Of a stretch of 64,000 nt of DNA, positions 34,295 through 62,555 are shown in pieces. The notes beneath the pieces are model-generated. The model did no database searches. It saw only the letters and a list, made by a program, of their open reading frames with translations, and was not told where the DNA came from. This stretch comes from Seiridium cupressi (Eukaryota > Ascomycota > Sordariomycetes > Amphisphaeriales > Sporocadaceae). Within the stretch, counting starts at the first letter, position 1. Each line of letters starts with the position of its first letter. The stretch lies in the NCBI GenBank assembly GCA_036674765.1, contig JARVKI010000024.1:62001-126000 (forward strand). Reading direction: 5' to 3'. The translations under genes were made by a program, and so were the position numbers.

Positions 34295-35041
34295 CTAGGT
34301 ACGATCTCACCTTAATATACTCATTTGCTGTTGATGTTTATCGTGAAAGGAAATATATAGGTCGTAAGCTATGCTGAAATATTATTTATCAAACCTAGGG
34401 AGGGATAGAGCCAGTCAATAGATCAGCGCCCAGCTCTCTACCGGCAAACCTGTTCCGAATATGGCATCTATCAAGTCTCAATCGTTGATCATCGGATGCT
34501 CAATACGACTCATTGGTTCATCCCTTCTTTTCCCCATCTTGCCGTGACAAGTGACCGGTTCCCCAGAGCGGCTCAATGTTAGTTTGAGGGGAACAGCTGG
34601 GGTAGTGGACCCTGAGATGCAGCACACGCCAATCGGCACTCTTCACCATAGGCGAAACTTGCCTGTTCTGCTAGCGTATTACTTCTTGGAGCAGACCGGG
34701 CAGGTCGGCCCCGCCACCTTCTGGTATCTCTACGTTCATAATAGTGGAGGGGAGGAGATGGAACGCATTAGCTCTTTGCTGCAAGTTGCTCAACAGACAG
34801 AAGAGACTCGTAACCTTCCAAGAAAGCCAGAAATGGAAATGTTTTAACTCGGTGTGGTCAACCACGCCGAGCCGAGACTCGACCGAAGCTCGTGACCGTG
34901 ATTGATATGTTTCTTTATAAAGGGTCGTCATCCTCACTGGTGATTGAGTAGTTGGTATCATCGTAGAGTTGGACTCAATTGGCAGTGTGCAGAGTTGGAT
35001 ACCCGACCTGAAAATCCTTAATTCCTCCTTGAAACTCCACA
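34295..35041. other. Intergenic region
   Basis: About 750 bases holding the GNAT 3' end and the promoter of the oxidoreductase gene. The frame over 34551-34847 has no recognisable features. Confidence 0.4.
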
Positions 35042-42083: not shown

Positions 42084-45000
42084 TCATGTACGGCTACGAA
42101 TAATGCCGCGCATGATCTTCGCGGCGCGGTGTAGGTCCTTCACGAAACCCGCCGTCCGTTCTTGTGAGCCTCCAGTAAGGGAGATCAAGATGCTGTATTC
42201 AAAGGTCAGTAAACTTGAGCACGATTCCGTAGTAATAGACGACAATCGCCACGCGGTTAAACTCACCTGTTCTTTTCCGGACTTATGAATGACCAAAAAC
42301 CCTCAGGATCCGGCATCAGGTGAACGTAATCTTCGACGGTTATCTCGCCTTCAAGCGAGTTAGTCTGTGCAAATATGGGCGGACTTGGGCGGCCGAAGAA
42401 GACCATGTCGCTCAAGAAACGTGGCTTGGGTGCGCTGTCGTCGGTCGTTGGCCACAGGTAGGCCAATACCTCAAAGACTCGTTGGCAGCTGCGGCCGGTG
42501 TGCAAGATCTGGAGGCCAGCGTTCATCGACTTGGTCGCTTCCAGCAAAAGGGGCCTCAGCTGAGCGGGTATGTCACGGTCTGAGTGGCCGTTTTGGACTT
42601 GGTAGACCCCAGCGGCTGCATCGCAGAATGCGTTGACCGCAGGCGTGGCTCTCTGCATGGCATCAGCGCGGCCACCGTGGAACAGAGCCCCGCTCGTGGG
42701 CTCCCACGAAGGCATGTTCTGGTCGAAGAACAACCGCAAGGCAAGTTGGAAGGTCAAGTCAATAACTCCCTTTGCAGGTACCCGGGATTGCAGGAGGAAG
42801 TCAGTTCCGAACTCGTCGAGTTGTTCTCGGACGTATGTCGACCTGGAGGTAGCCTGTTGGTACTGTTTTCGGAGACCGACAAGGTGGTTTTCGATCTCGG
42901 AAGTTGTCTTCAATACCATCTCCTGTAGCTTTATTTCAGAATGTCCACCATTCAGCTGGCTCGTACGGCCAGCCGACTCAGCCGGGTGGGCCATCATGAC
43001 GTCGGCTATCCATTCTCGAAGGCGGTTGGTAACGGTACCGTCAAGGATTCCGTGCTCGGTAATCAGGCCGGAGCGGCCATTTGCGCTCACGTAGAACTGT
43101 AGTACCTTGTCAAACCATCGATTCAAGCCATCACCGATATATCCCTGACGCGCGATCTGCTCTGGGGTTTCTGGGCTTCCGGCATCCAAGCATAGAACAA
43201 ACATGGCAGTGTCAAGGACGTGCAAATACTCGACATTGCTGGGATCCAGCGCCAATAGGGTCTCTCTTATCTTGAAACAGACATGTTAGCTTCAAGTGAT
43301 TGCATAGGCGTGAGATCAAATGCAGGGTTTCGTTCAGTCACGTCGGGTATTCGCTTGCTTACCTTGGCCCAAGAGTCTCTTTCATCAGTCGTCAGCAGAC
43401 CTGACAATACATCATCGCCCTCCACTCGCGCTACGATGGCTTCAAAAGTCGCCTGAAGCTGTTGGAATGACACGTCCTTGCCGTCCTCGTCCTGGAGCAT
43501 CACCTTGAAAAGGCGACCTTTCCTCAAAACAGCAACATGACCTCGGATATTGTGATCATCTGGGGATGGAGCATAGCTCACCACCTTGTCGCATTTGAGC
43601 TGCGGCACACGTGTAGAGTTGAAGAGCCATTCCCATCCCCAGGTGCACTCAAGCCTGCCGGCGATCTCTTGGGGTTCGACCTCGCCTGCGCTCATGGCCT
43701 GCCTGTAGGAGATAGCCGCGGAAGTTATAATGGCAGCACGCTCGGCCTGAGAGTGCCGTTTGCCGGAGTTGTCACGCTGCGCTCCCATGATGCTGGTCCA
43801 TGGAGCCACTGGCGCCCTTCTGCACAGGAATCGGGCATCTGTGACGATGTCGGTAAACCAGCTGGTGGACTTGTCATCCTTGTGCGTGTCATACAAATCC
43901 TGGAGGATCTTGCGGGCAAGGCTGTCTGGTGCACGCATCTCTTCAATGTCTCGATGGACGGACTCAAGTTGCTGCGGGCTAAGGAGATGTTCGTTCGCCT
44001 CAAGCCAGTAGTTAAGTGCATCATCCAGATCCGTCAAGGGCTGAGCGGATAGTTTGCAACAGCCTTGGCCATGCCCGACAGCTTCACCAGCAATGCTACT
44101 CCCATTGACAGCTGTGATTGCAGCATCCTGAGAGCCAGCCCGGCTTTCGGAGGTAGTGCCATTTTGTTCATTATGGTGGCTGGCGGGGCTCACACCATTG
44201 ACGCTGTTGGATTTGAGATTCATCCTCGAAACTACCACTTTGGCCAATGCGATCATGCTTTGCGCGCCACTGAGTTCGGACAGCTGCAATGGCGTCCGGA
44301 ATGTGTGCTTGATCCAATTCTTGAGCTCGATCGAGACGAGAGAATCCAGCCCGAGCGCTGCAATAGGTCCCTCTGGAACATCATCGCCAATAAAGGCGGT
44401 AAACCTGTCGAGCAGCGTTTTCTTCATGATGTCCTCGGCCTCGGCGATGGTCTTTGCTTGCTCTACAATCTGAAGCACGCTTTGCTTCTTGCTATTAGGG
44501 CCAGTACTGTTGGTCGCCTTGCCGCCCTGCCTTCTCTTGCTGGGAATATGGTCGTACATAGGATCACTCAGCGCCGAGGGACCGAAAGCATCCTCCATAG
44601 TGTCGCGGCTGAAATGCATGAGATGCTGCACGACTTCTTTGTTGGCTCGAGCTTGTGGGTTTATGGCGTACTCGAGAGTGGTAAGAACTTCGTCAAACGA
44701 AACAGAGCCGAAAGTCTGGGCAACATCGCTCCCTTGCTCCCGTGCGCCAGCGACCAGATTGGATCCCTCAACAGCTCCAACATTAATGGTGGCATAACTA
44801 GTGACTGCTCCTGGGGATTGTTTACCTGAACGAGCAAAAGCGTCCAGGAAAGCATTTCCTGCTACGTAGTTACTCTGCGAAGCTGAACCGACAATGCTCG
44901 CCACAGATGAGAGCATAATGAAGAATTCAGTTGTTTCCGGCGAGCAGAAGCCTGCATGAAGGTTGAGCGTACCTTGCACCTTGGGCGATAACGAGTCCTT

Positions 45001-48000
45001 CCAATCGTCGAAACCTATAAACTCAAAGGGATGGTCACGGAGGATCGTTGCGCTTTGGATGACGCCCCTAATTGGTGGTAGACCAAGGCGGGCTATTTTG
45101 TCGGCGGCACGGCGCGTATTTTCCTCGTCGCTGATGTCGCACTGGACAACGTGAAGAGCGCTGCCTAGATCGGCGATGGACTTTTGGACCTCGATGACGG
45201 CCGGCTGTTGAGCTACAGCATCGACATCTCGGCGAGTGAGCGCTACGATGTGGCCAGCCCCCTTTTCAGCGAGGAAGTATGCTATTCTTTTGCCGAGATC
45301 GCCAAGACCGCCGCCGATGACATACGTTCCCTCCGGTTGTAGTCGTAATGCCGGTGCTGTTGCCCTGGTAGCTTGCACAAGTGTCTGTTCATCGGCAACT
45401 AACACCAGCTTTCCTGTGTGTTTCCTCTCAGCGATAAGAGAGAACGCCTGCTCAACATTTGACATATCCATGGTTTTCACGGGATACACAGGCTTTACCA
45501 AGCCTTGATCAAGCATGGCAAAAATGTCTTTGACGCCCCGGGTCACTATTCCTGGGCGACTCCGATACATGTAGGGAGTATCTATGGCGGCGAATGTGGC
45601 CTGTTTGTCGAAATTGGCCATGTTGAGGTGGCCGCGGTCGAGGATATCTGTTTTGCCGATTTCGCAAAAGGTGCCGAATGGGGCAAGGCAGTCCCAGCTA
45701 TCCCTGAGAAGCTGCCCTGAGAGCGAATTGAGAACGACATCGACGCCACTGCCCTGTGTCGCGTCGAGAATTTGCTTCTTGAACTTCCCAGAATGCGAAG
45801 AGAATATGTGGCTGGCGGGTATGTTATATTGTTCCTGGATTAGCTCCTTCTTTGCAACACTACCAACCGTGGCATACACCTTTGCTCCTATAAGTTGTGC
45901 AATCTGGATCGCGGCCTGGCCTACACCACCTGAAGCTGAATGGATTAAGACGTTCTGGCCCTTCTCTAGCCGAGCAACATGGTTAAGGCAATACCAGGCG
46001 GTAAAGTATACTAGTGGGATCGACGCTGCATCAACAAATGTGACTGAGTCGGGGATGGCGACCACATTCTTGCTATCAACGCGAATCTGATTGCTGAACT
46101 GTGCGGCAAAAAGAGCTGTGACCCTGTCACCGGCCTTCCAGGATTGAACATTGGATCCGACGGCCGTAATGACACCAGCCACCTCGCCGCTCATTGGCGT
46201 CCCGGGCGCCATCTGGCCCAACGCGATGAGGACGTCTCTGAAGCTGAGGCCGTGCGCTCGGGCCTGGATCTGAATCTCTTCTGGACCGAGCGGGCTCAGC
46301 ATGTCGTCGTTGTCCACGAACCGAACGGACTTGAGCAAGCCTGGTACCTGAACGTCGAATTTCAGGGGTCTGTTCTCGTCGAAATATGGACAGTCCACCA
46401 GAGTTGTGTCGCCAGTCATGTTCTGCTCCAGGCTATGACGGCTCTCAATGTGGGCGGCCAGGTGATCGTCTGGAATGACTCTCGGGATTATCAGCTTGTT
46501 GTCACGGATGGCGTACTCGTGGTCTAGCTTGGACTCATCTGCGCTGACATCTTCCGACGACCAAAATGACCGCAAGGCAATCTCCGTCAGCGTTTGAATG
46601 ACATGCTGCAGCTCATCGTTGCTGTCGCAAGGCTGGATCGAATCTTGAACGTCAACAGTGATTAGGCGTAGACCGGGATTTTCACGTCGGAGAACCCTGG
46701 ACATGCCACTGATCATGCTCTTGAGGGCCTCCTTGCCGTCAGAAGGCGGCGAGGATTGGAAGCTGACCCAAACTATATTTCCGCCCTGGAGCAACAACTT
46801 CTTGACTTGCTCAAATGTCTCGGGGCTAGGATTCAGCAGTAGCGGGTGTTCGGCCGAGTCAATGACTATCGTAAGATTGTCGGATTCAGGGTCCTGTGTG
46901 GCCGCAGACCTCACACCCCAAGTCTCTCGGCGACATTCCATGCCTTTGTTGCCCAACGAGCGACACATAGCATCTCCAAGGGAGGCTTGAGATGTATCAT
47001 CTGAGCGCCCGAGATGGACTATCGCTGTCGGCTTCCTTCCTTCGACCCTCCGAAGCTGGGTGTCTGTTGTTTTCGCAGTGACAGGTACAGCCCGGGTCAC
47101 AATCACGCTACTGACATCACTCAAACGACCCTTGTGTGCTGGGATAGCAATATCTGCGCCGCTAAAGCCGTGACGCTTCAGATGCATGTCCAACTCAGAC
47201 ACGCTCATCGGGACTGCCCTCTGGTGTCCGTCCTCGGATATCCACCAGCCGTCCAGCATGCCAAAAACGGCGCTATCCGCCGCTGTAGCTGCCGTCAGCT
47301 CCATGAGGACGAGCCGGCCGTCCGGCTTCAGCAGCGATCGCAAGTACCCCAAGGTTGCGTCAATCTGGGGGGCGGTGTTTGACACCATCGAAGTCACTAT
47401 CAGATCAAAGCTGTGAGAGGTGTACCCCTGTGCGAGCGGGTCACGCGACATGTCCAGTGTCTTGAAGTCAACCTTAGCGGCCCATTCACCGAACCGGCTG
47501 CGCGCACGCTCGAGGTGATCAGAGGAAGCGTCGGTGTAGGTGTATGTCTCTACAGGTATCTGGCACTTCCGCTCCATTAGCTCCATGAGCGGCATAGCGG
47601 CGCCCCCAGTTCCTGCGCCGGCAACGAGTATGTTGATGTTAGGGCTTTTGTGGACGAGAGCCTGCACATATGCTCCAATCTGTGCGTAGTGGCCGCGCAG
47701 CATAGGGTGTTCGGAGTAGAGCCGTCCGAGGACGTCGTCACGAGCCAATAACTCCGAACCACCAGCCTCTCCGGTCAGAATATCGACGTAGTGTGGTCCA
47801 AGGCGGCCTAGAGCTAATCCAACAATGTTCGATTTACTGCTCTGCTCGATAAGGCTGGCCTCATCACGAGAAGTGACTCTCTCCAACAAATGTTGGGATT
47901 CTGTTGCGTCCCACTCCTTCATCCAGCTCAGTAGTGTGGAGAGTCGGATATTGCATGCTGCAGAAATGCCTTGCTCCTTCATATGCTGGACTGCTCGACG

Positions 48001-51000
48001 GATGAAAATTGCTGCGACCGTGTCATTCAGGTGCGCCTGTGCTTCTATTGCCTGGTCGCTCGTCTTTTCTTTGTCGATATTCATGAGGGCGGGGCTTGAA
48101 GCTTGAGCTATTATGTCATCCTTTGTGATGTAATCGACATCTGGCTTCCACTCCACGCGGTAGGTCATCTTCTTCTGGATGCTGTTATCCGCTTCCGCCG
48201 ACCCGACAACCTGTATCCGAATGTTGTTGCCGGTGAGCACTGGACGGAAGGTTCCATCGGTCCGCTTCTGGTAAGCACAATAAGAGAAGGCACCATCTCG
48301 CTCGGTCTGCTCGAGATTTTGCAAGGCCACTTCGATCTCCGTACCCGGGGCGCTCTCCATGTCGACTGCCATGGATATCTCTCCCAACATGGTGGGCATG
48401 ATTGGCGCGACAATACCTCCTTGCCGGAAGCATACGAGTCCCAGCTGGAACATTGAGTCGAAAGTACTAGGGTGGATGGTATGCGGTTGCATATCGTGTC
48501 CGGGTATGTGTTGTTCGATGTCTGGGACGACAATCTTGGCAGTGGCGTGTCCTTTGCCAACATGAATATCTTTCATACACTGGAAGGTATCGCCATATTC
48601 GTTGCCAGATGCTTTCAAATTACGATACGCCTCCATTGCTTCGACAGAGGTAGGGCAGATAACCTGCACGCCCTGCAGCCACTTATCGGCAGCTGCCTTG
48701 GTCAGATGGCCAAGGCCGTCGTCTCGGGCTTCGGTGAAATCATCGGCCGGGGACTGAGCAGAATTGACGATAGTATCGACGGAATCCCATGAGACAAGGC
48801 CGCTACAGTTATCAATCCAAGAGTCGTTCTGAGAATCGTAGGAAACCACACGGAAGTATTCCCAGCGGCTGCCCACGTGCTGTCTGGAGGGAGTGATGAT
48901 AAGCTGCAATTCCACCTCCTGGCTCGCTTTCAAATTGTCGTCATGTATTACTACGGGTTTGGCAAAGGTCGTGTCGCGGATGTTGATGTTTGTGATGCGG
49001 CCTGGAGTCTTGCGCAGCTGAAACAGCTGCTTCATGGCTTCGATGACCATGATCAGGTAGCCGGCACCCGGGAAAATGACGAAACCCTCGATGACGTGGT
49101 CTCGGAGCCATGGAATCTTTGCCAGGCTCACGTTATACTTCCACCGTGGTTCGTATGGCGAACAGCCCACCTCATAGAGTCCGAGAAGATCATGGTCCGG
49201 GAAAGGGCGCAAGCGACTTCCTTTGCTGAGTCGCGTTTCGCGCCAATACTTATTGCTGTGATCCCATGGATATGAAGGAAGGTCGCCAACAACTTGACGT
49301 CGGGAGCTCAAACTCTTGATTGTGTCTTCGCTGTTCAACTGGACAGGAACGCCGGATTCGAACACATTGCCTACCAGGGCCAGAACGGTGCCTACCGCGC
49401 TCGTATTTCGAACCAGGCATGGAACGTAGTTGTACTTGAAGGAAGTGCCAGACAGCGACTGTCTGAGTGGTCCCGAAAGTGCGGCATGAGGGCCAACTTC
49501 GATTAACACTTTGGCAGCTGTGGAATTTGCGTCCAACAAATGTTGAGCAACCAGTTGAGAAGCAGCGCTGAACTTGACCTGAGATACCAGATTGGACACC
49601 CAGTACGATGGCCCAAAACCAGATCGCTTTCGGGTACCAGTAACCGACGAGTAGAATGCCACGTCGTTTCGTGGCGTACCGAATTCTAACCCCTCCAGCG
49701 AGGAGAGATAAGACGGCGCGATTACCTCCATATGGTGAGAATGGTAGGCGGAGTCCACCTTTAGTCGCCTATTGAAGACTGATGCATCCTCCAACGTAGC
49801 CTGGAGTTCCACCAAAGCCGCTACGTCTCCAGAGACAGTTGTGCTCTCCGGGCTATTGACACACGCCACTGCCACCTTGCCCTTGCCGGTACCAAGCTGC
49901 TTGATTCTCTTGTTGACTGCATCTTCTCCTTCTCCTACGGCCAACATGCCCCCAGCTGTCGCATTCAGAGTCTTGGCCTTGGCGGAACATATTCCCCTCG
50001 TGTAGGCAACTCGCATCGCGGCCTCCTTCGTCAGAGCTCCCACCGCGTAAGCAGCTGCGACTTCCCCTGAACTGTGACCGCATACAGCCTGTGGGCGGAT
50101 GCCGTAGGTGGTGGCGAGTAGGTCGACGAGGGCAATCTGAACCGCCGTGGTGATGGGTTGGGCGAACCTGGCTTCCCCGAGCCGCGACGACTCCTCGTCC
50201 CGGGAGAGCTCCTCGACAAGATCCCACTCGCACCCCAGAGCCTTGAGCGTCTGGTTGCAACGTGCAATGGAAGATGCAAACCCACGCGACCCGAAGCTCG
50301 TTAGGAGCTCCCGCCCCATGGCGAACCACTGAGCTCCCTGCCCCGTGAAGACAAAGGCCAGGCCGACGTCCCGCGTCGATCTCACCATGCGGAGTTTGGT
50401 GTCTCCGAGCGCCTCTTCGAGCTCTTGTAAATTGCTCGAAACGACGCTGCAGCGCCATGTAAGCTTTGACCGGCGCGTGTTTAGGGTGTAGGCAAGGTCG
50501 GCAAAGGAGACCGACTGGCCTTGGCCCGATGATAGCCATTGTCGCAGGTTGGAAACCGTTTTGCTAAGAGATGTTTCCGAATTTGCCGACAAGACTATAA
50601 GCTTCGATTCGGCGCTGTCGTCAAGGTTTTCTTTGTTGCCGTTGACTAGATGCTCATTGCCGTTCACAAGACTGTTTCCGTCGACATGCCCATTGGTGGG
50701 AAGGGGCTCAGGTTCGTATCCCTCGAGAATGGCGTGAGCATTCGTTCCACCATAACCAAAGCTGTTCACAGACACGCGCCTAGGTCCCGTATGTCCTTGT
50801 GGGGTGAGTGGGGTAAGTTCCAGTGGTACCTTCAGTCCCTTCTCCTGGAGACGAAGCGATGGCTTTGGGGCGATGAAGTTGAGCTGCGGTGGGATCTGGT
50901 TCTTCTTGAGTACCATGATCGCCTTGATCGTGCCTGCTAAACCACTGGCTGCCTCTAGGTGTCCAATGTTGGACTTGACGCTACCAATAGGCAGGTCGGA

Positions 51001-52159
51001 AGTTCGTCCTGCTTCACGACCAAACACCCTAGCGATAGACCCAACCTCGGCACTGTCCCCCGCCACGGTTCCCGTTCCATGGCTCTCCACGAACAAGGTC
51101 TCGCGGGGGTCCAGGCCGGCTCTAGCGTAGACAGCACGAGCCAAAGCCTCCTGTGCGTCGCCGTTGGGCAGTAAAATGCCGGAGGTCTTGCCGTCATGGC
51201 CTACCCCCGATTCTACAATGACTGCATGGATCTGATCACTGTCTAACACGGCTCTGTCAAGGCGCTTCAGCACGAGGACACCAATGCCTTCGCCTCGCCC
51301 GTAGCCAGTACCACGGTCATCAAAAGCATAAGATCTTCCGTCTTTGTTGGTGAGCTCCCTGAGAATACTTGTCAGTGCAGCCCCAGCTGATGATGGGGTG
51401 ATCTCGTAGAAATCTTCAAGATGGCTTACCACATGGCAACGGACTGATCAGGGCTCAGCAGCAGTTGACTGGCCCCAGCCAGAGCGACTGTAGCCTCGCC
51501 GGCCCTCAGTGTTTGGCACGCTTGATGCAATGCCACAAGGCCACCGGACTGTAAGATATTGCACTCGGTCAGCAAAGCAATCGAAGAACGAGTCTGGCAA
51601 GAGTGGTGAGTGAGTAAGAGCTTACACATCCGGTATCCAAGGTATTGGAGCTCCCTTTCAAATCCAAGACATACGAAACCCTGTTGGATAAAATGGCCTC
51701 GCCAGCCCCGGTGATGTGTGCCAAATCCGCATGGGACATGTCTTTATACCCCATCCTGTCATAATCTCTCGCAAACATTCCTATATGCACAGAGGTGTCG
51801 GAGCCGCGCAGGCTCTCGATAGGCAGACCGGCATTCTCAAGTGCCTCGTAAGTCACCTCAAGCAGAAACCTCTGTTGGGGGTCAATGGCTGCCGCATCGA
51901 CGCCAGAGATATTGAAGAAGCGTGCATCAAATGCTGATACATCCTGATCCAAGAAATATCCGTGGCTAAAATTGGTGGCATCTTTGGTGGCTGGGTTCTT
52001 CTTGTGGAATGATTTCCAGTTCCACCGGTCCTCGGGCACTTCTTTGTGGCCATCTCGACCCTCGGCTAACATGGACCACAAACTCTCTGGACTGTCGGCA
52101 CCACCGGGAAGGCGACATGCCATGCCAACAATGGCGATTCGGCCATCCCCCTTGTCCAT
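42084..52159 (-). CDS. Highly reducing polyketide synthase with C-terminal carnitine acyltransferase domain
   Basis: Five exons, 51626-52159, 51430-51548, 43363-51358, 42267-43270 and 42084-42192, join in frame to 3,253 residues. KS begins IAIVGMACRLPGG. Its nucleophile Cys178 in DTGCSGG is the last codon of exon 1, with His311 (SHGTGT) and His351 (SNIGHLEA). AT: FVFTGQGAQ near 554, Ser647 in GHSSGE. DH: His972 and Asp1185. C-MT: VAGAGTGGA near 1462. ER: SASGGVGQAAIQ near 2028. KR: GGGLGDLG near 2233, Tyr2382. ACP: Ser2557 in LGLDSL. Then about 550 residues of choline/carnitine-acyltransferase fold, with FVLCLDAGSP, GLNRWFDK and catalytic-type His2956 in NGRSGLITEHGILDG. All core domains keep key residues. 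It makes a reduced, possibly methylated chain in the cytosol. In the characterised relative Tv6-931 of Trichoderma virens, this terminal domain releases the chain by transesterification onto a polyol. Here the acceptor is unknown and may include the partner pathway's product. The start ATG is 52159. Confidence 0.93.
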
Positions 52160-53749
52160 CTTGAAAACGGATGCTCAATTGGTAAGAACTGATCCGACCA
52201 TGACTGTGCAACTGGTAGTGGTGTACAAGGAGCAAAGACAAGGAAGCTGACGAGATTAGCACGACCAATTCGAACGACAGCAAATGGCCAAAGTCTCAGT
52301 GAATATTGCACATAGAGACACTTCGTTTCTAAAGTCACAATCCCGGAACGGTCGATCGCTAGGTCGATTTCTTTAGCCAAGCTTGACGATTGCATATCAA
52401 GAATTTCCCTTATAAACCCAATATTCCCATTGACAATGGTAAGATTGCACGGAGACGTACCAATACGCTTGCAAGGCTGCGTCTAGGGTAACATTTCCCG
52501 CTACCAAGTTCCCAGAATCGTACTACGGATGATCGAGCCATTTTGGGCAAGTAGGGCGACCGGATATCTAAGTTCGTGACAGCATGTAAGTGGCTAGGAG
52601 GCATGTGTCAGCAGAGAAGTCCTGAAGCCGTGGGGAGTTGCGTGGCAGTGTGGATGCGCACAATCTTTCGATACTGGTGGCAACGGGAGGTCTCACGAAG
52701 CGGCAGGGTCCAATGTACCGTGGGGGGGGGGGGTTCACTACATGGTACTTCTGCACCCTTGTCAGGCACCTGAAGAGGATTGGAAATGGGTCAAATGGAG
52801 TGTATGCATCTAACATCATCGACACCCCCGCTTAACTCGGGAAGATACTTGACAAGGGTACAAGGGGTGTGCCACTTATTATGTGTACCTCGATGGATGT
52901 ACTATGTACTGTAGGCGCGAAGGATTCTTGTCTCATTCCGGGCCACACCTGAAAGCATGCAGTGGGGCACATCGGCGCACTAGTATATTTGCTGCTGTCC
53001 TACGTATGTAGTGAATATAACGCAGAGAACGCTCACATGTCCATGTGCCAATCCTATTCGGGATCGGCCGCCGGACGCTTAGTACCAGGCCCACAGCGGT
53101 GGGCCACCGGCCGTATCCATGAGGCTGTGAGGATATGTTGAGGCTAGTTTTTTTTTTTTAGTACGCTAAAATATATGACAACAGAACAGGAATAAAGTAT
53201 GGATACCTATGAATAGTATCAAACGAGAGCTTACTAGTACATCAGGTCCAGGCAGCTAGCGTTATAATTACGAATGGTACGTACCGTACAGGTACTACGT
53301 ACAGGTCTCAGGGATGTTTTTACCTACTACGGTCCACATGTGGATAAAGCGCTGGTCTGCATATATACATACACTTTTGGCTGTTACATACATGTGTGTA
53401 AAAAAGTTTAGGTTATTGAACGCTCTTTTTTTGCTGCTACGGTACGTCTCCATAACACCCTAGTTAGCGCATATACTTTGTAAAAATATCCTGGTGACCT
53501 GTAGTAGGTTTCTCATTTTCTGGTTCACACCTGAACCGAGGTCGCGTAAGAAGCATACCCCCGTACGTATGCAATCGACTCTCACGCACCGATCCGGTAT
53601 TTTTGGCCAGATACACACGTGCTGGACTGGTCCATACACTACTGCGATAACATGAACATGGTTGACGAGTCTTCGATACGTGGACGAGTTCATGTTTCAG
53701 TGAACGACTCGGACTCGAAGTCACTTCGTGCGCCTACCCGATCACGACT
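52160..53749. promoter_or_regulatory. Bidirectional promoter of the two PKS genes
   Basis: 1.59 kb between the divergent start codons of the HR-PKS (52159) and NR-PKS (53750), the natural place for shared control. It contains a G12 run (52722-52733), a T12 run (53148-53159), a GC-rich palindromic CGGCCGCCGG near 53066 and a cluster of GTAC/TACGTA palindromes (about 53275-53310). CGG-containing sites suit a Zn2Cys6 regulator. No regulator gene is visible inside the cluster part of the window. No transcribed frame recognised. Confidence 0.6.
52722..52733. repeat. G12 homopolymer
   Basis: Twelve consecutive G within the inter-PKS promoter region. Prone to length errors and could form a G-rich structure. 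Confidence 0.7.
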
Positions 53750-56700
53750 ATGACCATGGGGCACATCTCGAGAGAGCATCGTGTGGTGCTTTTTGGGGGC
53801 CAGGGATCGTCGTCCATATTCTCGCCCACTGTTGCCAGCATCGCAGAACAAGATGCGCGATCCGTCAGCGCCGGGAACATTCTTCTATCAAAGTGCCATG
53901 CGGCGTTCTTGGAAGAAATCGAGAGCTTAGACGCCAAGTCAAAACATCTTCTGGCCCTTGATCCGTGTGTGTTCAGTTCACCCACTAATCTGCTCAAGCC
54001 TGCGGTGAAATTTCACACACATCCTGTGCTTCAGGCGACCACCATTTACCTCTGCCAGCTGCTGCGATACGTTGCCGAGTCACTACGCCAGGATGAGGCA
54101 TACGAACACTCGTTTGATACACTTCAAGCGACGGCTGGCTTCTCTTCAGGTATCCTCCCAGCTGCAGTGATAGCAAGATCTCACAGCTTGGATGACTTTG
54201 TGGCATCTGGAGTCCAGGGGTTCCGCCTCGCTTTTTGGATCGCATGCCGCAGTCTAGTCTGGACTCTGGAAACATCCGAGGATTGTGGCAACGAAGGCGG
54301 CGTGCATGGCGACTCGGCAGCGACACTGTCCCTTGTGACTCGTGGCCTCTCCCGAGCGCAGATCGAGCAGAGATTATCACAGCACTATGCTCAGGAGCAT
54401 GGTCCAGGGGGGCAACTGCCCGAATCTCAGCAAGCACCTCGGCGAATGGTGCCATCCGCAATATCGAGCTCTGGAGCCGTATCCATCTCAGGTCCCAAGG
54501 CTGAACTGTGTGCTTTTCAGGCCAAGCTGCACACCGCGGCAGACATAACAACCTTCGCTTTTGTGCACGGATGGTATCATGGAGGGGTTCAGCTCGAACC
54601 TGTCGTAGAGCAAGTACTAGAGGACTTGAGCCGCCGGGCCATCTCCTTTCCTCCTTGCTCTACACCTGCGAAGCCTATTTATTCGACGCTAGATGGCACG
54701 TTGTTCAAAGAGTCAACAACGTCTTCTCCCGACATGTTCCTAAGGTGGCTGACCCGACACTTATTGGTCCACTGCGTGGATTGGTATGCTACTACTCATG
54801 AAATCACAGCGAACGTGCGGAGCTTGGTGAAACAGGAGCCAGCCGCGGCTGTCAAGGTCGTTTCATTCGGACCGAGCTCCGGCTCTCTTTTCCCGGAGTT
54901 CGAACCCTTGGATCCCAGGATTACACTACTAGACTTATCCCCATTCAAACCAGACGGGAGGCCAGCAGTGCTGCTCCCCAATCACCAGGACGACATCGCA
55001 ATTGTGGGGATGAGCGTAAAGCTTCCCAAGGGTGGAAGCACCGCAGAGCTGTGGGAAACGATTTCTCAAGGGCTGAACGCCGTGCAGGAGATACCAGATA
55101 ATAGATTCAAAATATCCAACTTCCACACAGAAGATCCGGACAAACCGCGATCAATGCCTATCAAACACGGCGCATTCCTGGACGATCCTTTCTCGTAAGT
55201 CCCCGTCTCCTTCATAAATATATTGGCAGTTTGGTGGCTTGCGTGCTCATCTAGATGTTACAGCTTTGACAATTCATTCTTCAACATTTCTCCACGGGAA
55301 GCAAAGTCCATGGATCCGCAGCAGCGAGTCCTCCTGCATGCTGCCCAGGAAGCATTTGAGGATGCAGGCTATGTGGAAGACTCGTCCCCGTCTTTCCAAA
55401 GGGTCACCATGGGATGCTACATTGGCCTTGCGACTGGAGACTACACCGACAATCTCCGCAGTGACATTGATACTTTTTATTCGTCCGGCACACTTCGGGC
55501 GTTTCATAGTGGGAGATTATCGTACTTCTTTCGACTTAGTGGTCCATCCATCGTGACCGATACTGCATGCTCGTCCTCGACAGTTTCGATCCATCAGGCC
55601 TATCGAGCGCTGCAGAATGGGGACTGCACTGCAGCTATTGCTGGTGGCGTCAATGTCATTACTAGCCCCGATGTCAGTATATCATTTCACCGTGGCCCAA
55701 GAGGTGCAGATTTCGTAGATGAACAGTTGTTTGCTAACACGTATCTAATTTGCCAGATGTACCTTGGACTAGCTCGGGGCCATTTCTTGAGTCGGACGGG
55801 AGGCTGCAAACCCTTTGATGCAGCTGCCGATGGATACTGTCGGGCTGAAGGCTGCGTCCTGTTCGTGCTCAAGCGACTTTCAGATGCCGTTGCTGAAGGA
55901 GATCACATCCATGGTGTCATTAGGAACGTCTTGATCAACCAAAGCGGCAACTCCCACTCCATTACACATCCGCATAGCAAGACGCAAACAGACCTGTTGA
56001 GGCGACTGCTCCAGCAGAGGGACGTTGACCCTGGATCTGTTGGTGTGGTAGAAGCACACGGGACCGGAACGCAGGCTGGAGATGCACGAGAAATCGAAAC
56101 CTTGAGAGCTATCTTTGGACCGCACCATTCGGCGGCGAACCCCTTGATGGTGAGCTCGATCAAGGGCAACATCGGTCATTGTGAGGCTGCTTCGGGAGCA
56201 GCTGGCCTGGCCAAGCTGTTGCTCATGCTTCGCGAAAGGAAAATCCCGATCCAAGCCGGGCTGAATGACATCAACCCGGCTTTCGGCGACTTGCAAAGCT
56301 CCGGTTTGGCCATACCAAGACGCACCGTGTCGTGGAGTCACTCCAAGAGAACGCCTAGGCGAGCTGTGCTCAACAACTTCGGCGCCGCCGGATCCAATGC
56401 ATCACTTCTCTTGGAGGATTGGGTTGAATCTTCGAGAGCCCACATGCGGCGCGGCAAACAGGATGAAATCCAGGGGCGGTCCACATACCTCTTTGCACTT
56501 TCAGCGAGATCGGAGAAAGCTTTACAGTCAGCTATCAGTCGACACGTCGAGTTCCTGGGAGAAAAAAAGAGTCAACCGTCGTTGGAGGATATCTGCTACA
56601 CTGCGACCGCCCGGCGCCACCACCATGATCACCGTGTTTCGCTGACATGCACCTCTGTGGCGGATCTGCTGACCAGACTGCAGCACTATAAACTTGCTGC

Positions 56701-59700
56701 CTCTAAGCCCTCTCAAGTTGTCACAGCCACTGTCTTCGTCTTCACAGGGCAGGGTGCCATTTATCGCGGTATGGGTCGAGAACTGATAGATACGTTCCCT
56801 CCGTTCAAAGACATCATTATGAATTGCGACCGCATCATCGAAGCACTCGGGCTGACGTGCCCGAGCATACTTGACTTCATGCGATACAAAGACAAAGGCG
56901 GCACCGATGAACTAAGCGATACAGACATGATGATCGCTTCGCAATGCGCCTGCGTGGCTTTGGAATATGCGCTCGCCCAAATATTCATGTCTTGGGGGAT
57001 TATGCCGGACTACGTCATGGGCCACAGGTACGTCATAACTCAGCACTGGAAATTAGGAAGTAATGACCTTCGAGAACTGACTAGAACCTCTCTATCAGCC
57101 TTGGCGAGTACGCAGCACTTTGCGTGTCGGGGGCGCTGACTCTAGAGGATACATTTCGTGTCGTGGCATCCCGTGCAAAGATGATGGGCGACTACTGCCT
57201 CGCTAACACAACAGGAATGCTTGCGTGTGGTATGGCCCCTGAAAAGGTCGAAGCATTGATATCAGAGCACCCAGCTCTTGCCCAACTGACCATTGCGTGC
57301 TTGAACGGCCCCAGCGATTGTGTCGTCGGCGGCCCGCTGGCGCAGTTGGACACGTTCCAGAAGGAGTGCACGACCCGCAAGGTCAGAGCCAAGTTACTTA
57401 ATGCCCCTTGCGCTTTTCATACCTCAGCCATGGATCCTATCCTGGAACCTCTGCGAGTACTTGGGCAGTCGGTCAGGTTCGAACAACCCACCATACCCGT
57501 CATGTCCAACGTACACGGGCGTCTGTTCCGCAACGACTTTTCCAGTGACTATTTCGCAGATCACGCAAGACAACCAGTACGTTTTGCGGACAGCCTTCTC
57601 AGTCTACAAGCCTTGATGGGCGAGCCCGTTGTCAACGGAGCTCTCTTCCTCGAGATCGGTCCACAGCCCGCATTGCTACCAATGCTGCGAACGTCAATCC
57701 CTTCCAGCTCGTGTACCTATATCGGTACATTGCGAAAGGATCGAGATGCATGGACGTCCATCAGTGAGACGCTAGCCGCGATTTTCCTGCGCAAGATCGC
57801 CGTCAAGTGGCGCGAGGTTTTCGTCGGGACGTCAGCTAGGGTTACAAGCTTGCCTGGTCACCTTCTGGAGGGTTCAAAATTCCTAATCCCATACCAGGAA
57901 TCCTGCCCGATTGTACAGAATCCCAATGACTCGCCCACGCCAGGGCCTGACGCCCAGGGGCGCGTCAGAACTGGGCACCGTTTGTTGCCCTGGCTGAACA
58001 CAAGGGAATCTTCGAGTGAGGAACTCGTCTTGGAGACCGACATGTCAATCCTTGCATCGTTAATCTCGGGGCACGACGTCGGTGGGACTCCGATTTGCCC
58101 GGCCTCAGTCTTCCACGAGCTTGCTCTCGAAGCGATGCAAACTCTAGTCCAACCTCCCGACAGCCAAGTGTTAGTTGTCAACGGAATGCACTTTTCCAGC
58201 CCGCTGGTGCATGTGCCTTCGTCACGAGGAACTACTCTTGTGATGGTCGGTGTGCGTATTAAGAAGCAGGACAGCCCATCTTCTGGCGCAGCTGTCTTTA
58301 GGATTACGTCGCGCAGCTCGGCTAGAGACTCGGCCGAGACCTTACACTGCTCCGGCAATGTTTCAGTGCAGAACATCAATACCAGCTCGTCCCACTGGGT
58401 AAGAGACCAAGCAATTATGACCAGACAAAGAGGGTTTTTCTCTGGCGTTGGGAAACCTCACACGAGTACTTTCCGAACCAAGGTTTTGTACGAATCCATT
58501 TTCACGCGGGTCGTGAAGTACTCGGCAGATTACCAGAGTCTGGCGTTCCTGGACGTGGCCGATTCAAATCTCGAAGGAATCGGCTCGTTCAAGATGCCAC
58601 CTGATTCTAGTTCAGGTTGCGGTTCCCAATCAGGCTATCTCGCGCACCCTGTATTTACCGATACATTGCTGCACGCGGCAGGCTTCATCGCCAACCTCGC
58701 CATCGGCTCAGAGGAGATTGGCATCTGTGCCGGCGTGGAGTCGATAGAGATCGCCTATCGTGGCATCGACTACTCGGATTCCTTCGAGATCTATTGCAGC
58801 CTGCTGGAGGTCAAGGGAGCCATTATTGCTGACGCAATCGCAATGTCCGGATCAGGCATGGTCGTCGCAGTCGTTCGGGGCATGGAATTCAAAAGACTAA
58901 AGCTCTCGACTTTCCGCCAGTCCTTGTCTCGTCTATCGTCAACTGATGTTGTCGCATCTCAAAGTCGGAAAACCGTACAACATTCGGCGGCGACGACAGC
59001 GAAACTGCAAGTGAAAACCGCATGGGACACATCTCGGGCGAGTGTCGGCGTCGAGGGCTCCTCTCCTATCGAGCAAGGCAATGATAGCCCGATTCAAGCA
59101 GGAATCAGCCAAGTACTCAAGAACATCGTTGTGGAAGTTGGTGGTTTCACTGAACAGGATATCGACTATACAAAACCGCTGGGCGACCTCGGCATCGATT
59201 CACTCATGCAGATCGAGATGGCCTCGAAGCTGGCACGCTTGTTACCTGGCCAGACAGGCCTCAGCCACCACGCATTGTCCCAGTGCGCGACCCTCGAGGA
59301 AATGGACGACATGCTGTCCTCTGTTTTGCAGCCGCCTGCCATGCAAAAACTGCACAGGACGCTTGTCGACGTTTCCGAACCCGAGGTAACCACTCCGCGA
59401 GGATCGTCCTCCCAGTCTACCAACACTGCAGCCTCTGATTCCTCGGATGACTCAAGTCTATCTGACGTTGTGTGTGATTCCAACGCCCTGCCTGCAACAT
59501 TGTATGTTTCCGAAAAGAACCAAGTTCCACTGTGTCTATTCCACGACGGCAGCGGCCAGGTCGGTATGTATGCGCGGCTTCATGGCCACGATCGCACAAC
59601 ATACGCCTTCTTTGACCCGTATTTCGGGAATAGCAGAGACAAGCGAGTTTTTCATGGCAGCGTCAACCACATGGCTGAGCACTACGTCTCCACACTCCTT

Positions 59701-60446
59701 TCCAATCCCAAACTCCGATCGTCTCCCTTGATACTAGGCGGTAAGTTTCAACCATTTTCTCAAACTTCAAACCCTTCGTGGGCTTGCTTGATTTACATGG
59801 CTAACAATCAGGTTATTAAGGATGGTCATTCGGCGGGGTAGTAGCCTTTGAGGCAGCTCAACAGCTCATGGCCCGCGGGTTTGAGGTCAAAGGCCTCGTG
59901 CTAATTGACTCGCCCAGTCCTGTCGACCATGAACCTCTCCCAGCCGCGGTCATTTCTAGCCTCACCAAACCGGGTGCTCAGTCAAGAAACCTCGCCTCTA
60001 GTAGCAGTGTTGCACTAGAAGAAGAGTTTATATCCAATGCATCTCTCCTGGGAAGCTACGAGCCAGAGCCTTTTCCCAAGGCCGCTAGTAGGAGCATGAA
60101 GACCGTTATGCTGAGAAGCCAGGATGTCATGGACACGGAAGCTCTCTGGGCCGTGCGCTACGACTGGCTCAGTCGACAGGATACAAGGACTGCCTCTGTC
60201 GTCGCCTGGGAGGGACTGATTGGCGGTCGTATCGAGGTTCTTCCTATCCCAGGAAATCATTTCGAGCCATTCTTGGAAGAAAATGTAGGTGTTACTGCCG
60301 CTCCCTTTGCAATAATCTTTCCTCCCATCTCTGCACACACCAAATGAAGACACACACTGACCAAGGTTGCATAGATTGGTGAAACTGCAGCTCAGATATG
60401 GGAGGCGTGTCGATTTATTGAGGAGTTTTGCGCGGTCGAGTTTTAA
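53750..60446 (+). CDS. Non-reducing polyketide synthase (SAT-KS-AT-PT-ACP-TE)
   Basis: Six exons, 53750-55194, 55255-55672, 55757-57027, 57099-59740, 59821-60284 and 60375-60446, join in frame to 2,103 residues. SAT (about 1-370) has FGGQGS, GFSSG at 130-134 with Ser132 where many SATs have Cys, and HGWYHGG with His277. KS: IAIVGMSVKLP near 417, Cys587 in DTACSSS, then EAHGTGT and GNIGHCEA. AT: FTGQGAIYRGMG, Ser1045 in GHSLGEY, split by an intron. PT: His1370 (SGHDVGGTPICPAS) and Asp1566 (FTDTLLHAAGF). One ACP: Ser1746 in LGIDSL. TE: Ser1928 in GGWSFGGVV, Asp in LIDSPSP, His in PGNHFEPF. No methyltransferase or reductive release domain. It takes a starter through SAT, extends with malonyl-CoA, fixes cyclisation in PT and releases by TE. 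With an HR-PKS next door the starter is likely its product, as in resorcylic or dihydroxyphenylacetic lactone and azaphilone pathways. The final exon was found by homology (GETAAQIWEACRFIEEFC). Confidence 0.93.
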
Positions 60447-60642: not shown

Positions 60643-62555
60643 CTAGTCTTCATACTTCTCCCATAATGATTTGATAGAATCGTACTCATTCTCGATGACA
60701 TTCTTGTGTCTGTCAGATCGCGGTGTGATAAGTATGGGGAATTTCTTGGGTGCAATCAGAAATCCATCGTGGTAAGCCGTAACAATATCATCATCAACAG
60801 CCTCAGACCCTGGCGAGAGATTAAAGGCCCAAGCTATTTTGGCCATATTCAACATCTTTTTCGAGAACGTCGTCAGCAGTGAATAATTATCAAATCAAGA
60901 GGGTGAAAGTAAGGAAATATACCAAGGAGTTCTTCGCCAGACGATGGCCTGGGCATGTCCGTCTCCCTGCACCGAACGCGTACGATGTTCGCCGGTGATC
61001 ATCCGTGGTTGTATCAACGGGTACCCGAGTTCCATATTCGTTGTTGAGAAAACGGTCGGGCAAGAACTCTCCAGGTCTTTCATATTGAGCCTCGTCGTTA
61101 TGAATCGCCCAAGTATTAGCAATTACCACAGTACCTTTGGGTAAAAAGTATCCTTCATAGGTATCATCTTGGGTCAATGCGTGAGGGACCCCACCAGGTG
61201 CTACTGGACGCCATCTAAGGGTCTTTGAGGTCTAGTCAGAACATAGAGATATGAAGAAGGCAGCGCAAGTTGGAGCATGATTAACGCACCTCGTCCATGC
61301 ATGCCTTGATGAAAGGTAGATTACCAATATCTTGTGACGTCGGAGACCTCGATGATCCGCACACTGCATCAACCTCGCTTTGCGCCTTCTTGAACTCGGC
61401 CGGGTATTTGATCATAGCCAGAAGGAACGAGAGTAAGGTCGAGGCAGTGGTGTCTGAGCCAGCTTCCATCTGTCATAATCAGAAAAGAAACTCGAGAATC
61501 TGGCAACAAAGGCGAAAAGTGGCTACTTACTAGGTTTCCAGCCAAGTACGCAATATGCTCATCGTCCATGTCGTTCTTCTCTTGGTCTTGTAGCATCGAG
61601 CGTAGGAAGCAGTCGCCGCCCTTCCCAGCCTCCAGTCGCTTCCTGGTTTCCCGCAAGAGCCTGAGATAGAGGCTGCTCTGCTCCTCGCGCACAGCCTTGG
61701 CCCATCTTTTCCAGGGCGCCAGGAAATCGGGCAGCATCTTCAGAAATGGGTACTCATCGACTGGTGGAGTCGCCCCCTGCTCGAGGAGCGCGGTAAACTG
61801 GTCCTGGGCATGGTATAGCGCCTGAACATTGGGGGAATCGAAGCGCGCCCCACGCTGGCCATAGACCGAGGCGAGAATTACGGCAGTGGTATAACGGCGG
61901 ATGTGGTCGTAGTACCCTTGGGGGTCCTGGACAAGCTGTAACATGGTTTGTGTGGCTTCGGCTTCCTGGAGGGGAAGCAACCTGTCCACTACGTTCACAT
62001 TGAGAAGTGATTGCAGGATCTTGCGTTGTTTTCGCCACTCCGCGCCGTATTGTAGAAGGAGGATATGTATCTCATTTGGGCACACGACCTCATTGGCAAT
62101 ATAGCCGTTGGCACGACTGGAATAGATCGAGCCCCTCTGATCGAATAGACTGCACCATGTTCAGTTCTGTACTATACCATTGGTGATTTTACTGGATTCC
62201 CAACTCACGCCTTGACATGCTTGTAACTATTCAAGACGACAACATTTTGAGAGCCAATCTTCAAACCAATGATTGAGCCATAGTCGGCTTGCATGCGTTG
62301 AAACCTAGATAACGATGGTCATTATGGAAACAATGAGATTGTGTATTGCATGTTGTTTGCGTACTTGAGGAAGGCCTTGACGCGAGGCACCTGGGTGATA
62401 TTTCCGATGAAAGGTACTGTCGGAGGGCCGGGAGGGAAATCTGCAGGCCGGCGGCTTGCAAGAAAGTACTTGAACAAGACGGCTACGACAAGAAGAATTA
62501 CTGGCAGGCATAATTGGCTGACGCCCGGGACACCCATGATGCCCATCAGCGACAT
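60643..62555 (-). CDS. Cytochrome P450 monooxygenase of the PKS cluster
   Basis: Six exons, 62365-62555, 62209-62304, 61531-62149, 61290-61469, 60923-61222 and 60643-60855, join to 532 residues. An N-terminal anchor (LCLPVILLVVAVLFKYFLA) is followed by the PPGPPTVPFIGN proline hinge of ER-bound microsomal P450s. The I-helix oxygen-binding motif is AGSDTT at 305-310. The ExxR pair Glu362/Arg365 is split by intron 4. The heme loop FGAGRRTCPG spans 445-454 with the ligand Cys452. All signatures are intact. Six small exons set it apart from its neighbours. It lies tail to tail with the NR-PKS and probably oxidises the polyketide after release: hydroxylation, epoxidation or ring formation, not predictable here. 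It needs a cytochrome P450 reductase encoded elsewhere. The start ATG is 62555. Confidence 0.93.

What the first reader, a model, noticed from the sequence alone, without database searches (positions are those of the whole stretch)
42084..60446. HR-PKS with its own acyltransferase release domain paired head-to-head with a starter-accepting NR-PKS
Seen: the HR-PKS keeps intact KS, AT, DH, MT, ER, KR and ACP motifs and ends in a carnitine-acyltransferase-type domain with His2956. It diverges from an NR-PKS whose SAT domain should take a ready-made starter. Known: in collaborating HR/NR pairs the HR chain normally has no release domain and passes directly to SAT, while in Tv6-931 the acyltransferase domain esterifies the chain to a polyol. 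Having both creates a choice: hand-over to SAT, or esterification onto an acceptor, perhaps a hydroxyl of the aromatic product itself. I know of no described pathway that uses this combination with certainty, so the product may be new.
Basis: partly seen in the sequence, partly recalled or inferred. Interest (0 to 1): 0.85.

Follow-up and report, generated by a model that had tools for sequence, protein, structure and literature searches.

The report
Candidate papulacandin-type antifungal gene cluster
Two neighbouring fungal enzyme genes, with two sugar-transfer genes just outside the window, look like an assembly line that joins an aromatic ring, sugars and a fatty chain into a papulacandin-like antifungal, a drug-lead class whose genes I could not find described.

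Summary
In detail: a complete HR-PKS with a C-terminal carnitine-acyltransferase (cAT) domain (42084-52159, minus) lies head-to-head with a complete SAT-KS-AT-PT-ACP-TE NR-PKS (53750-60446, plus) in Seiridium cupressi. One detail is wrong: the C-methyltransferase has lost its conserved His. Just beyond it lie a transporter, two UDP-glycosyltransferases, a membrane acyltransferase and a decarboxylase-type amidohydrolase; a P450 lies inside. The pair is a conserved module: of 43 NR-PKS clade members, at least 13 share a contig with a HR-cAT relative, 30 with a glycosyltransferase relative, 7 with HR and both glycosyltransferases. Fungi carrying it include genera of known papulacandin and fusacandin producers. 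Best reading: no hand-over to SAT. The NR-PKS makes orsellinate, which is decarboxylated, glycosylated twice and oxidised; the cAT esterifies the HR chain onto the sugar. That is the papulacandin architecture, here probably with an unbranched chain. My searches of an open-licence library listed no papulacandin gene cluster. The product is inferred, not shown; confidence about 0.6 for the papulacandin class, 0.8 for an acylated aryl glycoside.

The parts
42084..52159 (-). HR-PKS gene, KS-AT-DH-(MT)-ER-KR-ACP-cAT, 3253 aa; exons 52159-51626, 51548-51430, 51358-43363, 43270-42267, 42192-42084
   Evidence: spliced model without internal stops, canonical introns; Pfam domains on exons
42084..44040 (-). 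C-terminal carnitine/choline-acyltransferase-type release domain (cAT), His2956 in EHGILDG
   Evidence: PF00755 E 6.8e-40 and 2.2e-46 in two exons; aligns to choline acetyltransferase with the His matched; H..DG in 35 of 35 of P0121-P0155
47311..47631 (-). C-methyltransferase domain with conserved His replaced by Asn1545 and altered motif I: probably inactive
   Evidence: that the His is catalytic is recalled
52160..53749 (.). shared upstream region between the divergent PKS genes (candidate bidirectional promoter)
   Evidence: gene model ends; no promoter test made
53750..60446 (+). NR-PKS gene, SAT-KS-AT-PT-ACP-TE, 2100 aa; exons 53750-55194, 55264-55672, 55757-57027, 57099-59740, 59821-60284, 60375-60446; predicted orsellinate synthase
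   Evidence: Pfam; 98% to a Seiridium cupressi protein on a 475,315-base contig
53786..54541 (+). SAT domain, nucleophile motif GFSSG (residue 130 on)
   Evidence: PF16073 E 3.6e-20; GFSSG in 39 of 43 clade members
60643..62555 (-). cytochrome P450 gene next to the NR-PKS (several introns; FGAGRRTCPG); ends read by eye, not spliced
   Evidence: PF00067 on one open frame, 33.8 bits; sequence read

Best explanation
The two PKS genes belong to one cluster that makes a papulacandin-class acylated aryl glycoside, by a convergent route. Step 1 (inferred from clade): the NR-PKS alone makes orsellinic acid from acetate/malonate units and its TE releases it. Step 2 (inferred): the decarboxylase-type amidohydrolase removes the carboxyl group, or the first glycosyltransferase (UGT1) replaces it. 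The ring carbon that bears the carboxyl in orsellinate, between OH and CH3, is the one that bears glucose in papulacandin (structure recalled). Step 3 (inferred): the second glycosyltransferase (UGT2) adds a second sugar and P450 oxidation of the methyl and the anomeric carbon closes the spiroketal. Step 4 (cAT present with its motif: shown; acceptor: inferred): the HR-PKS builds a reduced chain and its own cAT domain releases it straight onto a hydroxyl of the glycoside. There is no hand-over of the HR chain to the SAT domain. The membrane acyltransferase could add the second, short acyl group. In Seiridium the MT domain is probably dead, so the long chain should be unbranched.
For: Complete gene pair. 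Outside the window on the same contig: ABC transporter piece, two EryCIII/UDPGT-type glycosyltransferases, Acyl_transf_3, Amidohydro_2; the amidohydrolase matches 5-carboxyvanillate, gamma-resorcylate and ACMSD decarboxylases, after an uncharacterised metal-dependent hydrolase as best match. The window's NR-PKS and P0001-P0043 form one clade without other tips (44 tips, support 1.0). Of these 43 (P0001 is the window's own), 13 share a contig with a HR-cAT relative, 30 with a UGT relative, 7 with HR plus both UGTs, against 0 of the next 27. Adjacent locus tags, e.g. F66182_7762 UGT2, 7767 NR, 7768 HR, 7769 UGT1; OQA88_7921 UGT1, 7922 HR, 7925 NR, 7928 UGT2. A Stylonectria entry reads HR-cAT and UGT1 (81%) as one protein. 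NR and HR distances co-vary over 14 pairs, Mantel r 0.924, 0 of 5000 permutations. Carriers include genera of known producers: Apiospora and Fusarium, with a UGT1 orthologue (77.5% over 432 aa) in F. sambucinum; the chaetiacandin producer Monochaetia shares the family Sporocadaceae with Seiridium. The papulacandin guess stood in the notebook before these homologue searches. Papulacandins carry acyl groups on glucose C-3 and galactose C-6'. Precedent for a cAT releasing a chain onto a glycoside: LtbA, from domain truncation and feeding.
Against: No metabolite or expression data. Papulacandin G has a C-14 methine in its long chain (methyls at C-8 and C-14 recalled), but the Seiridium MT lacks the His, so this enzyme should not make that exact chain. 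Other cAT domains do other things: MaPKS17a's hydrolyses its product, and LtbA's cAT activity could not be shown in vitro. Only one glucan synthase gene was found and not in the cluster. The module is separable: NR plus UGT1 linked with no HR relative named from that genus (Pestalotiopsis, Xylographa), HR plus UGT linked with no NR clade member named (Stachybotrys, Podospora australis). 30 of 43 clade members showed no HR relative on a contig of the same length, partly or wholly a limit of the method. P450, amidohydrolase, Acyl_transf_3 and ABC genes were not tested for conservation. Overlap with producers is at genus level except the single F. sambucinum UGT1; producing strains were not examined. 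C- versus O-glycosylation cannot be read from the sequence.
Confidence: 0.62

Rival explanations
1. Some other acylated glycoside of an orsellinate- or orcinol-derived aromatic: same logic (cAT onto sugar), but O-glycosidic or non-spiro and not a papulacandin.
For: Same gene content as the best explanation; the MT is probably dead, so the chain differs from papulacandins A-D; the glycosyl linkage type cannot be read from sequence.
Against: Carrier genera overlap with known papulacandin producers; P450 plus decarboxylase is more than a simple O-glycoside needs.
Confidence: 0.2
2. Classical collaborating pair: the HR-PKS chain is handed to the NR-PKS SAT domain and becomes the side chain of a resorcylate, as in zearalenone or hypothemycin.
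For: Head-to-head HR/NR genes; SAT motif GFSSG is of a competent type; NR and HR distances co-vary.
Against: Known partners lack a release domain (passage); here the cAT H..DG is kept in 35 of 35 closest relatives. The clade member P0023 of F. graminearum (59%, GFSSG) is by elimination PKS14, listed as making orsellinic acid/orcinol; only distant HR-cAT relatives (36%) are named from F. graminearum. Hand-over would leave the cAT and two glycosyltransferases without a clear role.
Confidence: 0.08
3. The cAT does something other than sugar esterification: it esterifies the HR chain onto a phenol of the aromatic product, or merely hydrolyses it, or the NR-PKS makes a glycosylated depside as in aquastatin.
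For: MaPKS17a's cAT hydrolyses its product. Aquastatin uses a SAT-KS-AT-PT-ACP-TE NR-PKS plus a family-28 glycosyltransferase and long acyl-CoA starters. The cAT acceptor is not fixed by sequence.
Against: Esterifying cATs described so far use polyols or a glycoside. Aquastatin needs only an NR-PKS and one glycosyltransferase; here HR-cAT and two UGT types recur.
Confidence: 0.07
4. Two adjacent but independent pathways.
For: Each PKS appears without the other in some genera.
Against: 13 of 43 clade members linked with HR-cAT on one contig, in seven named genera and an unnamed Xylariaceae, with near-equal divergence of the two genes.
Confidence: 0.03

Closest known systems
LtbA, luteodienoside A synthase (Aspergillus luteorubrus; PMC10901484)
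   Same: HR-PKS KS-AT-DH-MT-ER-KR-ACP-cAT; cAT releases the chain onto a glycoside; glycosyltransferase in the cluster
   Different: LtbA works with a family-2 glycosyltransferase and glucinol; the terms NR-PKS, non-reducing and aromatic do not occur in the text; its MT is active (gem-dimethylation), here the MT is probably dead
Tv6-931 (Trichoderma virens)
   Same: HR-PKS with C-terminal cAT
   Different: cAT shown with small polyols in vitro and with release-and-recapture for dimethylation, which a dead MT cannot use; no NR-PKS mentioned in the passages seen
Fusarium graminearum PKS14 (orsellinic acid/orcinol synthase)
   Same: NR-PKS of the same clade if P0023 is PKS14: 59% identity, same GFSSG SAT and similar PT/TE motifs
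   Different: No HR-cAT or UGT relative was matched to P0023's contig; identity of P0023 with PKS14 is by elimination
Papulacandins, fusacandins, chaetiacandin (antifungal glycolipids)
   Same: Predicted product parts match: orcinol-type ring, two sugars, polyketide acyl ester; producer genera overlap
   Different: No gene cluster in my literature listings; the Seiridium version should carry an unbranched chain
HR/NR collaborating pairs (zearalenone, hypothemycin, asperfuranone)
   Same: Paired HR- and NR-PKS genes with a SAT domain
   Different: There the HR-PKS has no release domain (passage); here a conserved cAT
Aquastatin AquA/AquC (PMC11514314)
   Same: SAT-KS-AT-PT-ACP-TE NR-PKS with a glycosyltransferase; orsellinate unit
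   Different: Depside with fatty acyl-CoA starters; needs only NR-PKS and glycosyltransferase

Membership tests
HR-PKS with cAT release domain | KS-AT-DH-MT-ER-KR-ACP followed by Carn_acyltransf in one protein | tested here: met
   ACP hit is below its family cut-off but GLDSL is present
HR-PKS with cAT release domain | catalytic His and DG motif of the acyltransferase | tested here: met
   EHGILDG, His2956; 35 of 35 of P0121-P0155
HR-PKS with cAT release domain | release by esterification onto a polyol or glycoside | not testable with these tools
   needs enzyme assay
Orsellinic acid synthase (NR-PKS) | SAT-KS-AT-PT-ACP-TE with intact catalytic motifs | tested here: met
Orsellinic acid synthase (NR-PKS) | same clade as a characterised orsellinate synthase | tested here: inconclusive
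   P0023 of F. graminearum is in the clade but its identity with PKS14 is by elimination; a clade member in Apiospora hydei is named orsellinic acid synthase by its source
Orsellinic acid synthase (NR-PKS) | product orsellinic acid | not testable with these tools
   needs expression
Collaborating HR/NR pair with SAT hand-over | HR-PKS lacks a release domain | tested here: not met
   cAT present and conserved; rule from a PMC10401856 passage
Collaborating HR/NR pair with SAT hand-over | competent SAT motif GxCxG or GxSxG | tested here: met
   GFSSG
Papulacandin-class pathway | linked NR-PKS, acyl-making HR-PKS with a possible sugar-ester route, two glycosyltransferases, oxidase | tested here: met
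   the list of needed enzymes is my retrosynthesis, not a published definition
Papulacandin-class pathway | active C-methyltransferase for a methyl-branched long chain (papulacandins A-D type) | tested here: not met
   His lost in the window's HR-PKS; none of 21 nearest relatives P0121-P0141 has it (one has a gap there), 12 of 14 of P0142-P0155 do
Papulacandin-class pathway | the cluster is present in proven producer strains and needed for production | not testable with these tools
   only genus-level overlap and one F. sambucinum UGT1 orthologue

The most novel reading that the evidence does not exclude
This is the gene cluster family for the papulacandin-class glucan synthase inhibitors, known as compounds since 1977. 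It would use a pathway logic that I have not seen described: an NR-PKS aromatic is C-glycosylated at (or after loss of) its carboxyl carbon, extended by a second sugar and oxidised to a spiroketal, and serves as the release acceptor for the cAT domain of a partner HR-PKS. Loss of the MT in the branch with Seiridium and the close Fusarium members then marks natural congeners with unbranched chains.
Probability: 0.55. Interest if true: 0.85.

Novelty: new variant of a known kind. Interest (0 to 1): 0.75.

Why it matters
Papulacandins inhibit 1,3-beta-glucan synthase, the target of the echinocandin drugs (recalled), yet my searches listed no biosynthetic genes for them. A clear candidate cluster conserved over several genera makes the question directly testable and gives a genome-mining handle (NR-PKS of this clade + HR-cAT + UGT1 + UGT2). 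It predicts chain branching from the MT state. It offers a fungal C-glycosyltransferase candidate, a type called not yet described for fungal metabolites in a 2021 paper (passage). It would add a new role for cAT domains: joining two polyketides through sugar.

Tried and rejected
Rejected: the Ser in the SAT motif as proof of inactivity. I first read GFSSG as a loss; PMC10401856 (passages) counts GxSxG as competent, so this argument was dropped. Rejected: self-resistance through a second glucan synthase; one PF02364 match, on another contig. Considered and not pursued: an inositol ester, suggested by a Gfo/Idh/MocA oxidoreductase at 35033-36162; an amino-acid permease lies between it and the HR-PKS and nothing links it. 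My regular-expression look at other SAT motifs in this genome gave too few clear hits to use.

Limits of the counts. Co-location used the longest-contig length in the search tables as a stand-in for contig identity, checked by locus tags only where names showed them. Each entry stands for a cluster at 90% identity, so linked pairs can be missed; the window's own pair is not among the 13. I gave the first 70 of 120 listed NR-PKS hits (of 3125 found), all 79 HR hits and the 120 listed of 170 UGT hits, so the 0 of 27 control is tested against the closest HR and UGT relatives only. In the HR tree the branch without the MT His is not perfectly clean: its common ancestor holds 26 tips, four of them extras (P0156, P0158, P0159, P0177), support 0.876, and the next wider grouping that I tested has support 0.098. 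Of the 44 HR relatives beyond P0155, 14 have a gap at the cAT motif and one is partial; the other 29 keep the His, many with DL, DI or DA in place of DG.

Full report
What is there. The window is C24:62001-126000 of a 45.4 Mb genome in 228 contigs. Contig C24 is 475,315 bases long, and the best match to the NR-PKS (98%) is a Seiridium cupressi protein on a contig of exactly 475,315 bases, so the window is S. cupressi (Sporocadaceae). Splicing with canonical introns gives a 3253-aa HR-PKS on the minus strand (42084-52159) and a 2100-aa NR-PKS on the plus strand (53750-60446), both without internal stops, and His2956 as reported. Pfam confirms KS, AT, DH, MT fold, ER, KR and Carn_acyltransf in the first, and SAT, KS, AT, DH-like PT and one PP-binding domain in the second. 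The TE exon was not submitted; it has GWSFGG, and P0001, 98% identical, lists thioesterase PF00975. The HR ACP has GLDSL at residue 2554 and matches PF23297 at 24.8 bits, below that family's cut-off of 27. The Carn_acyltransf matches elsewhere in the genome, on C11 and C37, lie in open frames of 560, 673 and 170 aa.

The MT domain keeps its fold (Methyltransf_12, 48.5 bits; LovB and citrinin synthase among nine PDB matches), but the His of the conserved LHATP stretch is Asn1545, and the acidic residue before GAGTGG is lost. LovB has NVLHATP at this place. That this His is catalytic in PKS C-methyltransferases is recalled. None of the 21 nearest relatives (P0121-P0141) has the His (one has a gap there); 12 of the next 14 (P0142-P0155) do. 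So the MT is probably dead in the branch with Seiridium, Dactylonectria, Monosporascus, Coniochaeta and the close Fusarium members, and alive in Cercophora and Colletotrichum relatives. More distant Fusarium HR-cATs (such as P0161, P0166) keep the His.

What lies past the window edge. Inside the window the NR-PKS is followed by a P450 (60643-62555). Beyond 64000, in C24 coordinates and with ends mostly read from open frames: an ABC transporter (about 126759-130848; one frame tested), UGT1 (131259-132725), UGT2 (134376-135906), an Acyl_transf_3 membrane acyltransferase (about 136786-138150), an Amidohydro_2 protein (about 138391-139722) and a further P450 (from about 143926). The two UGTs are 46% identical and match glycosyltransferases in the PDB, among them oleandomycin and YjiC types. 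The amidohydrolase matches 5-carboxyvanillate, gamma-resorcylate, 2,3-dihydroxybenzoate and ACMSD decarboxylases, though its best match is an uncharacterised metal-dependent hydrolase. On the other side of the HR-PKS lie a small protein without a Pfam family, an amino-acid permease and a Gfo/Idh/MocA oxidoreductase, so the left border is probably the HR-PKS.

A conserved module. Protein searches gave 3125 relatives of the NR-PKS (120 listed), 79 of the cAT region and 170 of the UGT pair (120 listed). The window's NR-PKS and P0001-P0043 form one clade without other tips among the 121 sequences aligned (support 1.0); P0001 is the window's own protein. The 13 come from seven named genera and an unnamed Xylariaceae. 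Locus tags confirm neighbourhood where names show them: Fusarium sp. NRRL 66182 7762/7767/7768/7769, Cercophora LCS_1 7921/7922/7925/7928, F. lateritium ACHAPO_009550/009551, F. coffeatum 03436/03437. One Stylonectria entry fuses HR-cAT and UGT1 (81% to our UGT1), probably an annotation fusion that shows adjacency. Over 14 linked pairs, the window's included, the NR and HR distance matrices correlate at 0.924 (0 of 5000 permutations). The module is separable: NR linked with UGT1 and no HR relative named from that genus (Pestalotiopsis, Xylographa), HR linked with a UGT and no NR clade member named (Stachybotrys, Podospora australis).

Why not hand-over to SAT. In known pairs the HR-PKS has no release domain (passage of PMC10401856). 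Here the cAT H..DG is kept in 35 of 35 closest relatives. The SAT motif is GFSSG in 39 of 43 clade members (2 GLCSG, 1 GFSFG, 1 without residues there); GxSxG counts as competent, so the motif itself does not decide. The F. graminearum clade member P0023 (59%, GFSSG) is, by elimination among that species' NR-PKSs as I recall them, PKS14, which is listed as making orsellinic acid/orcinol (Table 1 and reference list of PMC4198257, passages; Jorgensen 2014 itself not read). Only HR-cAT relatives of about 36% are named from F. graminearum, and none was matched to P0023's contig. A clade member in Apiospora hydei carries the name orsellinic acid synthase. So the NR-PKS most likely primes with acetate and works alone.

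What the cluster makes. An orsellinate-type ring, a decarboxylase, two sugar transferases, an oxidase and a reduced chain released by an acyltransferase are the parts needed for a papulacandin: an aryl spiroketal on glucose, a beta-1,4-linked galactose, and polyketide acyl esters at glucose C-3 and galactose C-6' (passages of PMC12824588; of PMC3388860). From recalled structures, the sugar-bearing ring carbon lies between a hydroxyl and the CH2O carbon, which is where orsellinate carries its carboxyl; this fits decarboxylation before, or with, C-glycosylation. A cAT that releases onto a glycoside has a precedent in LtbA (PMC10901484, parts 1-3 of 4 read), shown by truncation and feeding, not in vitro. 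Known producers are Apiospora sphaerosperma, Monochaetia dimorphospora, Tainosphaeria simplex and Garciamycella (Sordariales), and Fusarium sambucinum (reference title). Module genes are found in Apiospora, many Fusarium and Sordariales genomes (placement of Cercophora, Apodospora and Rhypophila in that order is recalled), and a UGT1 orthologue (77.5% over 432 aa) in F. sambucinum; Monochaetia is in the same family as Seiridium. The papulacandin idea stood in the notebook, from gene content, before the homologue searches, which gives the overlap some weight. No producing strain was examined.

What speaks against it. The probably dead MT means that Seiridium should not make the methyl-branched chain of papulacandins A-D, so the product would be an unbranched congener. 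A cAT can also merely hydrolyse its product, as reported for MaPKS17a. One glucan synthase gene was found, elsewhere. Roles of UGTs, P450s, amidohydrolase and Acyl_transf_3 are inferred from family and position. Other acylated orcinol glycosides remain possible, and aquastatin (passages) shows that the same NR-PKS layout with one glycosyltransferase can make glycosylated depsides.

Literature. I searched for papulacandin with gene cluster and polyketide synthase (6 of 6 papers listed), papulacandin with biosynthe (25 of 48 listed), fusacandin (6 of 6), at least three of six terms with papulacandin among them (20 of 2,940 listed, one holding papulacandin), and carnitine acyltransferase with HR/NR-PKS or glycosyltransferase terms (3 of 3, 11 of 11 and 3 of 3). 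From titles and abstract starts, none is about a papulacandin cluster or a HR-cAT/NR-PKS pathway. Of the papers in these listings I opened PMC10901484 (most of the text) and passages of PMC12824588, PMC10142451, PMC3388860, PMC11514314, PMC11088548 and PMC10512364; the others only as listings. The library holds open-licence PMC papers only, so a subscription paper could have been missed.

Verdict. A real, complete, conserved gene pair, misread at one domain and cut off from its glycosyltransferases by the window edge. Most likely a papulacandin-type acyl glycoside cluster; a new variant of a known kind, with a testable claim on an old antifungal class.

Noticed in passing
HR-PKS relatives P0121-P0155: The C-methyltransferase His is absent in all 21 of P0121-P0141 (one a gap; close Fusarium members, Seiridium unicorne, Dactylonectria and others) and also in Apodospora P0148 and Rhypophila P0151, while the cAT motif stays intact in all 35.
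   Followed up: partly
P0127/P0222 Stachybotrys; P0147/P0252 Podospora australis: HR-cAT relatives linked to UGT1 relatives with no NR-PKS clade member named from these fungi: the chain may be put on another glycosylated acceptor.
   Followed up: no
P0032/P0230 Pestalotiopsis; P0016/P0249 Xylographa bjoerkii: NR-PKS and UGT1 relatives linked with no HR-cAT relative named from these genera, hinting that UGT1 acts on the NR-PKS product.
   Followed up: no
P0023, Fusarium graminearum: If P0023 is PKS14, the orcinol synthase of F. graminearum may be a remnant of this module.
   Followed up: no
P0145, Colletotrichum siamense: A HR-cAT relative (59% over the cAT region, 50 member sequences) is named AFT9-1 after the AF-toxin PKS; no Colletotrichum is named among the 120 NR-PKS hits listed.
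   Followed up: no
window 27210-30225 (-): AAA ATPase domains in two overlapping reading frames, possibly one gene with an intron.
   Followed up: no
window 35033-36162 (+): Gfo/Idh/MocA oxidoreductase with an amino-acid permease between it and the HR-PKS; not linked to the cluster by any test.
   Followed up: no
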